This document shows positions 22,648 to 50,877 of a DNA stretch of 64,000 nt, one piece after another. The notes beneath the pieces were generated by a model, which made no database searches, was not told the DNA's origin, and saw only the letters and a list, made by a program, of their open reading frames with translations. The position numbers and the translations under genes were made by a program. The stretch comes from Lachnospiraceae bacterium UBA1818 (GTDB taxonomy: Bacteria; Bacillota; Clostridia; Lachnospirales; Lachnospiraceae), in the NCBI GenBank assembly GCA_904419285.1, contig CAJFQZ010000015.1, positions 34,359-98,358 on the forward strand, read 5' to 3'. Numbering within the stretch: position 1 is the stretch's first letter; every line of letters begins with the position of its first letter.

Positions 22648-23067
22648 ATGAACATACTTTTCTTCTTGAAGCCCAAGAGTGAAGTGGCGTTCATCTATGA
22701 CTACAGTACATTGAGACAGGTGCTGGAAACGATGGAATACCATAAGTATGCGTCGATCCCCATGCTGAACAAGAAAGGGGAATACACGGGCACCATCACA
22801 GAGGGCGATCTTCTCTGGGGCATAAAGAAATACACGAATCTGAATCTGAAAGAGGCAGAGAATATTTTCATTCAGGATTTCCCAAGAAAAGCAGACTACG
22901 AGGCCGTCTCAGCGGACTCTGATATGGAAGATCTGATCCAGAAGGCAATGAACCAGAATTTTGTACCGGTGGTGGACGACCAGAACAAATTCATTGGAAT
23001 CATTACCCGCAGGAGCATTATCGAGTACTGTTATGAAAAACTGAAAAAAACGGAAGAAGCCTATTGA
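22648..23067 (+). CDS. CBS-domain pair protein
   Basis: A stand-alone 139-residue protein made of two CBS motifs, at about residues 10-60 (TLRQVLETMEYHKYASIPML) and 75-130 (NQNFVPVVDDQNKFIGIITRRSI). CBS pairs bind adenine nucleotides or SAM and act as sensors, but there is no effector domain, so the partner is unknown. It begins 42 bases after aspartate kinase and probably shares its transcript. Its 3' end overlaps the -35 box of the rplU promoter. Confidence 0.85.
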   Translation: MNILFFLKPKSEVAFIYDYSTLRQVLETMEYHKYASIPMLNKKGEYTGTITEGDLLWGIKKYTNLNLKEAENIFIQDFPRKADYEAVSADSDMEDLIQKAMNQNFVPVVDDQNKFIGIITRRSIIEYCYEKLKKTEEAY

Positions 23068-23093
23068 CTTAATAAAAAACCATATGTTATAGT
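23064..23093 (+). promoter_or_regulatory. Promoter of rplU-prp-rpmA
   Basis: TTGACT (23064-23069) and TATAGT (23088-23093) with an 18-base spacer, starting inside the last codons of the CBS gene. It gives an mRNA leader of about 75 nt before rplU. Confidence 0.6.
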
Positions 23094-23099
23094 ATATGA

Positions 23100-23176
23100 G
23101 TATGCCGCACAATGAGGTTTTAAGATCTGCCCTGCAGACACCGTAATTGGCGAGTAATGATAATAGGAGGTGCCAT
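23100..23176 (+). promoter_or_regulatory. Probable L21 leader (autoregulatory 5' UTR)
   Basis: The 5' UTR between the promoter and rplU is where many Firmicutes carry the L21 leader RNA, thought to bind the ribosomal protein for feedback. Here it includes CTGCCCTGCAGAC and GCGAGTAATGATAATAGGAGG, ending in the rplU ribosome binding site. I assign it mainly from position. I did not verify a match to the family's covariance model. Confidence 0.45.
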
Positions 23177-23451
23177 ATGTACGCGATTATAGCAACAGGT
23201 GGTAAACAGTACAAAGTAGCTGAAGGCGATACGAAACTTATACATTTGACCAGGTGCTTGCAGTGAACAACGATAAGCTCATCGTTGGAACACCGACGGT
23301 AGAAGGTGCAACAGTTACAGCTTCTGTGATCGGCGACGGCAAGGCAAAGAAAGTTGTCGTTTACAAGTATAAGAGAAAAACTGGATACCATAAGAAAAAC
23401 GGACACAGACAGCAGTATACAGCAGTGAAGATCGAAAAGATCAATGCATAA
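23177..23451 (+). pseudogene. rplU: Ribosomal protein L21 gene, disrupted near codon 18
   Basis: ATG 23177 follows AATAGGAGG and encodes [18 protein letters not shown], a normal L21 start. The frame then runs to TGA at 23264-23266. The rest of L21 ([12 protein letters not shown] through the C-terminal KIEKINA) is in another frame, from about 23242 to 23451. Between GAT (ends 23230) and ACATTT (starts 23242) only 11 bases remain, where family members usually have about 45. About 34 bases are therefore missing and the frame is shifted. L21 is a core large-subunit protein and the downstream genes are intact, so a sequence error or an intact copy elsewhere must be considered. Confidence 0.85.
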
Positions 23452-23463
23452 TACAGTGCTCCG

Positions 23464-23796
23464 ATGATCAGGGTAACCATTTACAAGACCGCAAGGCATG
23501 AATATGTGGGGTTCGATCTGTCCGGACATGCCGGATATGCCGAATCCGGGCAGGATATCGTCTGTGCGGCTGTCTCAGCACTGGTGATCAATGCGGTCAA
23601 TTCGCTTGAACGGTTTACCGATGATGAGACAAGCTGTACTGCCAATGAAGAAACCGGAGACATAGAGCTCAGGTTCGCAGGCAGCCCTTCCCACGATGCC
23701 GCGCTTCTGCTGGATTCCATGATTCTTGGTCTGGAAGAGATAGAAGACAGCAGGGAATACAAGTCATATATCGACATTATTTTCAAGGAGGTGTAA
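23464..23796 (+). CDS. prp: Ribosomal-processing cysteine protease Prp
   Basis: Prp removes the N-terminal extension of ribosomal protein L27 in Firmicutes. The 110-residue protein has the catalytic pair H22 and C34 in [21 protein letters not shown] (positions 20-40), the spacing known for the family. It lies between rplU and rpmA, the standard order, 12 bases after the L21 stop and 5 bases before rpmA. Its substrate is encoded by the next gene. Confidence 0.93.
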
Positions 23797-23801
23797 GTAC
23801 C

Positions 23802-24086
23802 ATGATGAAAATGAACCTTCAGTTTTTTGCACATAAAAAGGGAGTTGGTTCTACAAAGAACGGACGTGATTCCGAATCCAAGAGACTGGGCGCAAAGAGA
23901 GCAGACGGACAGTTTGTTAAGGCTGGAAACATCCTTTACAGACAGCGCGGAACAAAGATTCACCCGGGTGTGAATGTTGGACGCGGCGGAGATGACACTC
24001 TGTTTGCACTTGTAGACGGTGTAGTGAGATACGAAAGAAAAGGAAGAGATAAGAAACAGGTTTCTATCTATCCGGCGGCAGAGTAA
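23802..24086 (+). CDS. rpmA: Ribosomal protein L27 with Prp-cleaved leader
   Basis: L27 reaches into the peptidyl-transferase centre through its N-terminus. This 94-residue form starts [14 protein letters not shown]. The LQFF sequence is the Prp recognition site, cut before AHKKG to expose the working N-terminus. AAGGAGGTG precedes it, and the second Met (23805) is an alternative start. It is followed by a clear terminator at 24145. Confidence 0.96.
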
Positions 24087-24144
24087 TCGGTGTAACTGCA
24101 TAAGCTGAGTCGGAACTTTTCACTCGCATACTAAGAAGCTAAGA

Positions 24145-48888: not shown

Positions 48889-49299
48889 TCATTATCTTAT
48901 CACTGTGACGGCACAATACAATGATTTATTTTAGCACAGTTTAAAAATCATGTATAGAGATTGAATCTTAATTTTTTGTGAATTAAGCCATGCAAATCAA
49001 AAACAAAGCGGCTGTGCAAGCTTGCTTGCATCAGACGATTTGCTTTTTGATTTATACGGCGCAGCCGTAAGCGAGACGAAGCACTGCGGAGTCGAGCTTA
49101 GCATGGCTGGATGTCTTCGACTCCTTAATTTCCCAGCTGAGAACACGGAAATCATTCGGCTGTGCAAGCTTGCCTGCATCAGACAATTTGCTTTTTGATT
49201 TATACGGCGCAGCCATAAGCGAGACGTAGCACCGCGAAGTCGAGCTTAGCATGGCTGGGTGTCTTCGACTCCTTAATTTCCCAGCTGAGAACACGGAAA
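48889..49299. other. 411-base intergenic region between radC and the flavoprotein gene
   Basis: This gap holds the putative radC promoter (listed separately), an AT-rich stretch to about 48990, and the tandem 148-bp repeat (from 49009). Short open frames seen inside the repeat copies on the minus strand have no start context and read in two frames between copies, so I do not call them genes. Confidence 0.6.
48928..48936 (-). promoter_or_regulatory. Possible extended -10 promoter of radC-mre-min
   Basis: On the minus strand TGCTAAAAT fits an extended -10 element 40 bases upstream of radC. The -35 position, 17 bases upstream, reads TATACA-like and is weak. Confidence 0.4.
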
Positions 49300-49310
49300 T
49301 CATTCGGCTG
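49009..49310. repeat. Tandem 148-bp repeat, two copies plus a stub
   Basis: Copy 1 is 49009-49156, copy 2 is 49157-49304, and a 6-base stub follows. By eye I count 7 differences in 148. Each unit has internal palindromes: TGCAAGC/GCTTGCA near its left end, GGCTGTGC facing GCGCAGCC, and GGAGTCGA facing TCGACTCC in copy 1. The right end covers the stop codon of the flavoprotein gene, so the gene ends inside copy 2. This looks like a folded dispersed repeat of the REP/MITE kind that has duplicated in tandem. Copies elsewhere in the genome cannot be checked here. Confidence 0.8.
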
Positions 49311-50877
49311 CATATCTCTTTATGACCGCCTCCGCCACCTTCATCCCGTCCATTGCCGCCGACGTGATTCCGCCGGCATACCCTGCTCCCTCGCCGCAGG
49401 GATAGATCCACGGGATATCCGATGTGAAATTCTCTCCCCGGACGATCCTGACCGGGGATGAGGTGCGGCTCTCCACTCCGGAGAGAAGCGCGTCGCCGTC
49501 AGCAAACCCGCGGATCTTGTGATCCATAGCGCAGATGCCCTGCTCTATGGATTCAGAGATCACATCCGGAAAGATGTTCCTTACATTGGCGAACCGGTAA
49601 GCACCTTTCATGTTCGGGCGGATGCGCCCCGGCCCGGTACTGATCTGATTCTTCCGGAAATCACAGAAGCGCTGTACGGGGATCCTTCCCTGCCCTTCCT
49701 GCCACGCTCTCTCCTCGAGCTCTCTCTGGAAAGCGATTCCTGCGAGAGGGTGCTCCGAACCGTAATCTTCCGGAGATACAGTGACAATAACAGCGCTGTT
49801 GGCGTTCTCCCCTGCCCTGTCATGATAGCTCATACCATTGACTGCAAGACGTCCTTCCTCCGAAGAAGCATTGACCACATAGCCGCCCGGGCACATACAG
49901 AAGGTGTACACTCCTCTTCCGTTTTCCAGCTTTTCAGTCAGCTTATACGCGGCGGCAGGAAGATTTCCTCGCCTGGCGCGCCCGTACTGCGACTCGTCGA
50001 TCATCCTCTGCAGATGCTCCACACGAACCCCCACTGCGAAAGATTTCGCCTCCATCCTGAGACGGCGCCGGTAGAGCATCTCAAAAGTATCTCTGGCGCT
50101 GTGTCCCACGGCAAGTACCGTGGGGCCTGCTGGGATCTTTCTCTCTCCGTTGATCTCGACCGCATGTTCTTCTGGGAAGATGTCTGTCAGCTGTGTGTGG
50201 AAGCAGAATTCCCCGCCAAGCTCAATGATCCTGTTCCGCATGTTCTCAACTACAGTTGTCAGGATATCTGTTCCGATATGAGGCTTCTGTTCATAGAGGA
50301 TCTCCTCTGGAGCGCCGAAGGAGACAAAGGTCTCCAGTACGAAACGGTTCCGGCCGACAGGATCCTTGACAAGAGTATTCAGCTTGCCGTCGGAAAATGT
50401 TCCTGCTCCTCCCTCACCGAACTGTACATTGGACTTTGTGTTAAGAATACCGGTCTCCCAGAATTCTTCCACATCCCGCTGTCTTTCACGGACAGAAGCG
50501 CCCCGTTCCAGAACGAGAGGACGCATTCCCGAAAGTGCAAGAAGATACGTGCAGAACAGTCCCGCCGGACCGCTTCCCACTACCAGAGGACGATCCGGCA
50601 GGGGTTCCGCGCCGTGTTCCGGAATACGGTAAGTCTTTTCACTTATCTTCTGTACTTTGTTTTTCATATGGCGGAGTACCATATTTTCTTTTTTCGTGTG
50701 GAAGTCAATGGTATATACGTAGAAGAGCTCAGGCTTTTTTCTTGCATCGAGAGAACGTTTCCGTATCGAGTAACTGATCAGGTCGTCCGGAGCAATCCGG
50801 AGGGTCTTTGCCAGCCTTTCTCTCAGCTGCTGTTCTGTGTGCTCGACTGGAAGTTTGAATTGTGTGATACGCAGCAT
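49300..50877 (-). CDS. FAD-dependent NAD(P)-type dehydrogenase, uncharacterised family
   Basis: A 525-residue flavoprotein with a N-terminal extension (about 1-95, LRITQFKLPVEHTEQQLRER), a dinucleotide-binding GxGxxG in VVGSGPAGLFCTYLLALSG, and the second family block QFGEGGAGTFSDGKL. Ends GAGYAGGITSAAMDG near the C-terminus. Members are annotated as FAD-dependent oxidoreductases of unknown substrate. Its 3' end lies inside the 148-bp repeat. Confidence 0.85.
   Translation of the reverse strand: MLRITQFKLPVEHTEQQLRERLAKTLRIAPDDLISYSIRKRSLDARKKPELFYVYTIDFHTKKENMVLRHMKNKVQKISEKTYRIPEHGAEPLPDRPLVVGSGPAGLFCTYLLALSGMRPLVLERGASVRERQRDVEEFWETGILNTKSNVQFGEGGAGTFSDGKLNTLVKDPVGRNRFVLETFVSFGAPEEILYEQKPHIGTDILTTVVENMRNRIIELGGEFCFHTQLTDIFPEEHAVEINGERKIPAGPTVLAVGHSARDTFEMLYRRRLRMEAKSFAVGVRVEHLQRMIDESQYGRARRGNLPAAAYKLTEKLENGRGVYTFCMCPGGYVVNASSEEGRLAVNGMSYHDRAGENANSAVIVTVSPEDYGSEHPLAGIAFQRELEERAWQEGQGRIPVQRFCDFRKNQISTGPGRIRPNMKGAYRFANVRNIFPDVISESIEQGICAMDHKIRGFADGDALLSGVESRTSSPVRIVRGENFTSDIPWIYPCGEGAGYAGGITSAAMDGMKVAEAVIKRYAAE

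What the first reader, a model, noticed from the sequence alone, without database searches (positions are those of the whole stretch)
23177..23451. Core ribosomal gene rplU (L21) is broken by a complex small loss
The N-terminal 18 residues and the whole C-terminal part of L21 are intact in sequence, but in different frames. Only 11 bases lie between GGCGAT and ACATTTGAC, where homologues usually have about 45, and the remaining ACGAAACTT looks like a fragment of the missing EKL codons. That suggests two adjacent deletions rather than one indel. The promoter, ribosome binding site, prp and rpmA are normal. Either this is a sequence or assembly error, or the strain lacks a standard L21 here.
Basis: partly seen in the sequence, partly recalled or inferred. 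Interest (0 to 1): 0.8.

Follow-up and report, generated by a model that had tools for sequence, protein, structure and literature searches.

The report
Probable assembly gap in rplU
A core ribosome gene looks broken by 34 missing bases, but the break lies where genome assemblies of related gut bacteria also tend to fail, so it is most likely an assembly mistake rather than a bacterium living without this protein.

Summary
The break is in the sequence. rplU (bL21) at 23177-23451 lacks 34 nt (gene nt 56-89) against 52 of 53 measurable relatives (37 against the other), so its two parts lie in different frames. No second L21 gene was found in this 51-contig, 94% complete genome. Two adjacent deletions are not needed: against relative L075 the window is one clean 34-nt gap, and the leftover CGAAACTTAT is the downstream Gly-Glu-Thr-Tyr stretch, not an EKL remnant. 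The gap sits in the 5' end of rplU, where DNA is often identical between Mediterraneibacter species. Contigs of other assemblies end there: 8 of 11 nearby contig ends, all 8 in MAG or uncultured records, none in 18 isolates. One related contig ends after gene nt 89 and another starts at nt 90, the right edge of the window's gap. Another assembly lost 63-72 nt, including the Shine-Dalgarno, from the leader just upstream. In a 61.5-kb comparison with the nearest relative, rplU is the only clear gene that is frame-split, and the rest of L21 shows no decay. Best explanation: local misassembly at a segment shared between species (about 85%). A real deletion cannot be excluded without reads.

The parts
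22648..23067 (+). upstream CBS-domain-like gene, intact; the domain name is recalled, no family scan was run on it
   Evidence: 95.7% aa identity over 139 of 139 residues to relative G044
23106..23155 (+). L21 leader RNA (RF00559-like), intact
   Evidence: 25.1 bits, E 0.015, below gathering score 36; my 15-pair structure on 25 sequences: 97.9% of cells paired, 7 pairs with changes on both sides
23133..23231 (+). left side of the gap: stretch shared exactly with other species (end of leader, SD, codons 1-18 plus one base)
   Evidence: exact runs across the start codon of up to 99 nt, 80 nt or more in 25 of 39 loci measured; synonymous diversity 0.071 and 0.103 in rplU codons 1-10 and 11-20 vs 0.33-0.54 in the CBS gene
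23177..23231 (+). rplU left part: gene nt 1-55
23231..23232 (+). junction where 34 nt (gene nt 56-89) are absent relative to intact relatives
   Evidence: right edge coincides with contig ends and starts in other genomes
23232..23451 (+). rplU right part: gene nt 90 to stop, in the -1 frame relative to the ATG
   Evidence: TIGR00061 80.1 bits over profile 30-101; PF00829 31-99
23264..23266 (+). TGA that ends the ATG frame after 29 codons
23464..23796 (+). prp (name from the finding and recalled), intact
   Evidence: 75.5% aa identity over 110 of 110 residues to G044
23802..24086 (+). rpmA (name from the finding), intact
   Evidence: 98.9% aa identity over 94 of 94 residues to G044

Best explanation
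The broken rplU is most likely a local assembly error. The end of the L21 leader and the first 18 codons of rplU are often identical DNA between Mediterraneibacter species, and within groups of species the identity runs on to codon 29. In a mixed-species short-read assembly such a block is a shared repeat, so the graph branches where species-specific sequence resumes, for example at the variable third base of codon 30 (gene nt 90). Contigs of several assemblies stop there. In the window's assembly the right side, beginning exactly at nt 90, was joined to a left side that had lost the preceding 34 nt. The organism itself probably has a normal rplU. Shown: the gap, the sharing between species, and the recurrent contig ends at or next to the same base. 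Inferred: that this genome is a mixed-community assembly, and the joining step itself.
For: (1) Of 58 genus genomes (G000 included), 49 have L21 in one piece, 3 only a partial hit at a contig edge (G003, G048, G054), 5 none, and G000 alone has an interrupted copy inside a contig. (2) In the 64 loci, 11 contigs of close relatives end within 2.5 kb downstream of the CBS gene; 8 of the 11 end between -1 and +89 of rplU (binomial about 4e-8 for a 160-bp block chosen post hoc). All 8 are MAG or uncultured records; 0 of 18 isolates (Fisher one-sided p 0.049). Four of the 8 are contigs of genomes already met, so the counts are not independent. (3) G057's contig ends after nt 89, G003's begins at nt 90, G001 and G025 end at nt 88, G054 at nt 87; the window's right part begins at nt 90. 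The four contigs ending at nt 87-89 belong to groups of 5 records whose -20 to +87 DNA is identical. G001 and G025 each show a 131-nt identical overlap between two contigs here, G057 116 nt. (4) A second assembly (L103/G030, IDBA-based MAG by its title) has 13 nt from a leader motif to the ATG, against 76-85 nt in the other 56 loci measured, and so lacks the Shine-Dalgarno. (5) No microhomology at the junction with L075 as reference. (6) rplU is the only clear gene flagged as frame-split against G044:C1; L20, L13, S12 and L19 each match in one open frame. (7) The last 70 codons, stop included, differ from L074 by 12 synonymous and 5 amino-acid changes, with no premature stop.
Against: No reads could be mapped, and whether G000 is a MAG or an isolate is not shown. 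The left edge of the gap (nt 55) matches no contig end seen elsewhere. No other genome examined shows this same gap. Near-identity across the whole genus holds only to about codon 20: synonymous diversity in codons 21-30 is 0.406, like the rest of the gene, and the 57 loci with 87 nt of rplU show 43 distinct -20 to +87 sequences; the longer shared block exists only within groups of species, and whether the window's species belongs to one is unknown. The nearest relative compared is a different species by its 84% DNA identity, so no same-species intact copy was seen.
Confidence: 0.85

Rival explanations
1. Real recent 34-nt deletion in rplU. The strain, or a subpopulation, makes ribosomes without bL21, or has an unassembled second rplU. 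It is young, so the rest of the gene has not decayed.
For: The sequence is otherwise clean where it could be compared. The deletion is a single simple event against L075. Bacterial L21 is listed as dispensable in one passage of PMC9538462.
Against: 147 of 149 other family genomes of 90% or more completeness have an L21 match (which counts G000 among its 150); none of the other 57 genus genomes shows an internal break, though 5 have no match and 3 only a contig-edge part. The right edge coincides to the base with contig breaks elsewhere. No junction microhomology.
Confidence: 0.13
2. The gene is expressed despite the break, by -1 frameshifting or by stop/restart at the GTG at 23254, giving an internally shortened L21 or an L21 tail.
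For: The two frames overlap between 23224 and 23263, and a GTG at 23254 lies just before the TGA at 23264.
Against: None of the 53 relatives measured at both landmarks has such a gap. About residues 19-30 are missing, which are present in the best-matching solved L21 chain, 3j3v_R. I saw no slippery heptamer or SD for the GTG by eye; no scan was run.
Confidence: 0.02

Closest known systems
Inter-genomic repeats as a confounder of metagenome assembly (MetaCarvel paper PMC6710874, passages seen)
   Same: Conserved DNA shared by different genomes in one sample; contigs here stop at the end of shared stretches.
   Different: Here the proposed outcome is a short silent loss inside a contig, in a ribosomal gene, not only a contig break.
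rplU / bL21 of Mediterraneibacter and relatives (TIGR00061, PF00829)
   Same: Both parts match the family; gene order CBS-like gene, rplU, prp, rpmA, obg as in the nearest relative.
   Different: 34 nt absent; the ATG frame stops after 29 codons.

Membership tests
functional rplU / bL21 | one continuous frame of about 102 codons over the L21 profile | tested here: not met
   Left piece 23.1 bits and right piece 80.1 bits to TIGR00061 in different frames; relative L074 123.1 bits in one frame
functional rplU / bL21 | conserved operon context and leader | tested here: met
   the Rfam leader hit is below its gathering score
assembly artefact at an inter-genomic repeat | block shared between species, of k-mer length | tested here: met
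   exact runs of up to 99 nt with the window, cut by its gap; 116-131 nt contig overlaps in three relatives. The assembler and k used for G000 are unknown
assembly artefact at an inter-genomic repeat | other assemblies break at the same place, isolates do not | tested here: met
   8 of 11 contig ends in the block, 0 of 18 isolates
assembly artefact at an inter-genomic repeat | raw reads contradict the assembled sequence | not testable with these tools
   no reads available
repeat-mediated deletion | direct repeat or microhomology at the junction | tested here: not met
   0 bp with L075 as reference; the window species' own lost letters are unknown

The most novel reading that the evidence does not exclude
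A living Mediterraneibacter lineage has truly lost functional bL21 while keeping the rest of its ribosome genes normal.
Probability: 0.08. Interest if true: 0.6.

Novelty: not a real feature. Interest (0 to 1): 0.1.

Why it matters
It gives an ordinary explanation for an apparent loss of a core ribosomal protein. It also suggests that 5' ends of ribosomal genes that are identical between related species can create frame breaks and contig ends in assemblies, which could mimic gene loss in surveys.

Tried and rejected
Site-specific integration or mobile-element scar in rplU: considered when several genomes showed contig ends at the same base. Rejected because three contig pairs overlap by 116-131 identical nt and the ends printed carry ordinary rplU flanks, with no foreign sequence seen. 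The window's leader and start block occurs once in its own genome.

Second rplU: none found in the held assembly. Plasmid collection: no megablast match to 22900-24100.

Two adjacent deletions: not excluded, but unnecessary.

General poor sequence quality: not supported. That comparison used ORFs of 90 codons or more of the relative, E 1e-10, best identity 50% or more, over a span of about 61.5 kb that has unmatched stretches. Seven rows were flagged SPLIT-FRAMES: rplU and six others. Five of the six (o18, o22, o93, o131, o132) overlap better-matching longer ORFs on the opposite strand and I judged them shadow ORFs by eye; the sixth (o4, window 49000-49411) overlaps the end of a better-matching ORF on its own strand and was not resolved.

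A genus-wide conserved block to codon 29, as I first wrote: corrected. It holds to about codon 20; beyond that only within groups of species.

Literature: the searches for L21 essentiality showed no direct experiment in their listings. Shoji 2011 and Akanuma 2012 are not held; only a citing passage was read (PMC9538462). Passages of PMC10931766, PMC4592705, PMC7535068 and PMC4014445 were also seen. A search on L21 leaders gave a listing only. No paper on recurrent rplU assembly breaks appeared in the listings of the two searches made on assembly, which used general terms.

Full report
What is there. The ATG at 23177 opens rplU behind an AGGAGG. Codons 1-18 match the family, then the frame runs to a TGA at 23264 after 29 codons; the rest of L21 is open in the -1 frame from 23224 and ends at 23451. 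NCBIfam TIGR00061 gives 23.1 bits for the left piece and 80.1 bits for the right piece (profile 30-101), against 123.1 bits for the intact nearest relative. The own genome (51 contigs, 94.26% complete, 1.45% contaminated) shows only these two PF00829 pieces and one copy of the leader/start block.

Size and nature of the gap. In 53 relative loci with both landmarks, the distance from ATG to the VYKYK motif is 216 nt in 52 and 219 nt in one; in the window it is 182 nt, so 34 nt are absent. With L075 as reference the window is explained exactly by one gap: left part to gene nt 55, right part from gene nt 90, no inserted base and no microhomology. The script did not resolve every relative: offsets found were mostly 34, 33 in three rows, 37 in L100, and many rows gave none. 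The retained CGAAACTTAT encodes the Gly-Glu-Thr-Tyr segment in relatives.

Sharing between species. Mean synonymous codon diversity is 0.071 for codons 1-10 and 0.103 for 11-20 of rplU, against 0.33-0.54 across the adjacent CBS-like gene; it is 0.406 for codons 21-30. rpmA shows the same low start (0.063, 0.121) and the end of prp is low too, so a conserved stretch is not unique to rplU. The window shares exact runs across the start codon of up to 99 nt (23133-23231), 80 nt or more in 25 of 39 loci measured, cut on the right by its own gap; 19 of 57 loci are identical to it from -20 to +54. Beyond codon 20 the sharing holds within groups: two groups of 5 records are identical from -20 to +87, one with L085, L086 and L115, the other with L092, all four being contigs that end at nt 87-89; a third group of 5 has no such end.

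Other assemblies fail here. Of 58 genus genomes (G000 counted), 49 have an unbroken 1-99 match, 3 have only a partial match at a contig edge (G003, G048, G054), 5 have no match, and G000 is the only one interrupted inside a contig. Three of the 49 (G001, G025, G057) also carry a partial copy on the end of another contig; the two contigs overlap by 131, 131 and 116 identical nt, as expected where graph contigs meet at a branch (inference). In the genome-contig scan (64 loci), 12 loci are cut downstream by a contig end; one distant relative (L135, 48% identity, no rplU reached) was set aside. Of the 11 left, 8 end between -1 and +89 of rplU; the binomial value of about 4e-8 uses a 160-bp block chosen after seeing the data. 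All 8 are MAG or uncultured records: 8 of 43 such close relatives against 0 of 18 isolates, Fisher one-sided p 0.049 (L134, L135 and L137 dropped as distant; records sorted into MAG and isolate by me from their titles). L085, L086, L092 and L115 have the contig lengths of G057, G054, G001 and G025, so the two counts share those contigs. The base agrees: G057 ends after nt 89, G003 begins at nt 90, and the window's right part begins at nt 90, a variable position (A 39, C 9, G 4, T 1 in 53 loci). L103/G030, an IDBA-based MAG by its title, has 13 nt between a leader motif and the ATG where 56 other loci have 76-85, and so lacks the Shine-Dalgarno: a second, different loss next to the same start.

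What speaks for a real change. rplU is the only clear gene flagged as frame-split over a span of about 61.5 kb matched to G044:C1 (nearest relative, 84% DNA identity in the rplU region); six other flags are five apparent shadow ORFs and one unresolved short ORF. Four other ribosomal proteins each match in one open frame. That fits a local misassembly or a single real mutation equally well. The last 70 codons, stop included, have 12 synonymous and 5 amino-acid differences from L074, so any real loss would have to be recent. L21 matches in 147 of 149 other family genomes of at least 90% completeness (two of these, G073 and G179, only in part, at contig edges as far as their coordinates show). 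L21 is listed among ribosomal proteins shown to be dispensable in bacteria in one passage of PMC9538462, so a viable L21-less strain is not impossible. The primary deletion studies were not held.

Verdict. An assembly artefact at an inter-genomic repeat is the best explanation, about 0.85. [quoted passage not shown] That G000 is itself a mixed-community assembly is inferred from its 51 contigs and 94% completeness and from the company it keeps, not shown. Reads would decide.

Noticed in passing
window 23106-23155: L21 leader RNA scores below Rfam's gathering cut-off (25.1 vs 36 bits), yet its structure is supported by compensatory changes in 25 sequences, so the Rfam model may under-detect it in this genus. 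A single-sequence fold of the window leader was not better than shuffles (z -0.02).
   Followed up: partly
L103 (G030:C4), around 2962-2975: Leader of rplU reduced to 13 nt from a conserved motif to the ATG, without Shine-Dalgarno, in an IDBA-based MAG; likely another assembly loss.
   Followed up: partly
L100, rplU codons about 25-27: Ruminococcus faecis JCM 15917 record has three extra bases in a G run of rplU (219 instead of 216 nt), in frame; real or a homopolymer error.
   Followed up: no
rplU and rpmA, codons 1-20, in the loci: Low synonymous diversity at the 5' ends of both ribosomal genes compared with the upstream gene.
   Followed up: partly
window 49000-49411: Short ORF of the relative (o4) matches here in two frames; not resolved.
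   Followed up: no
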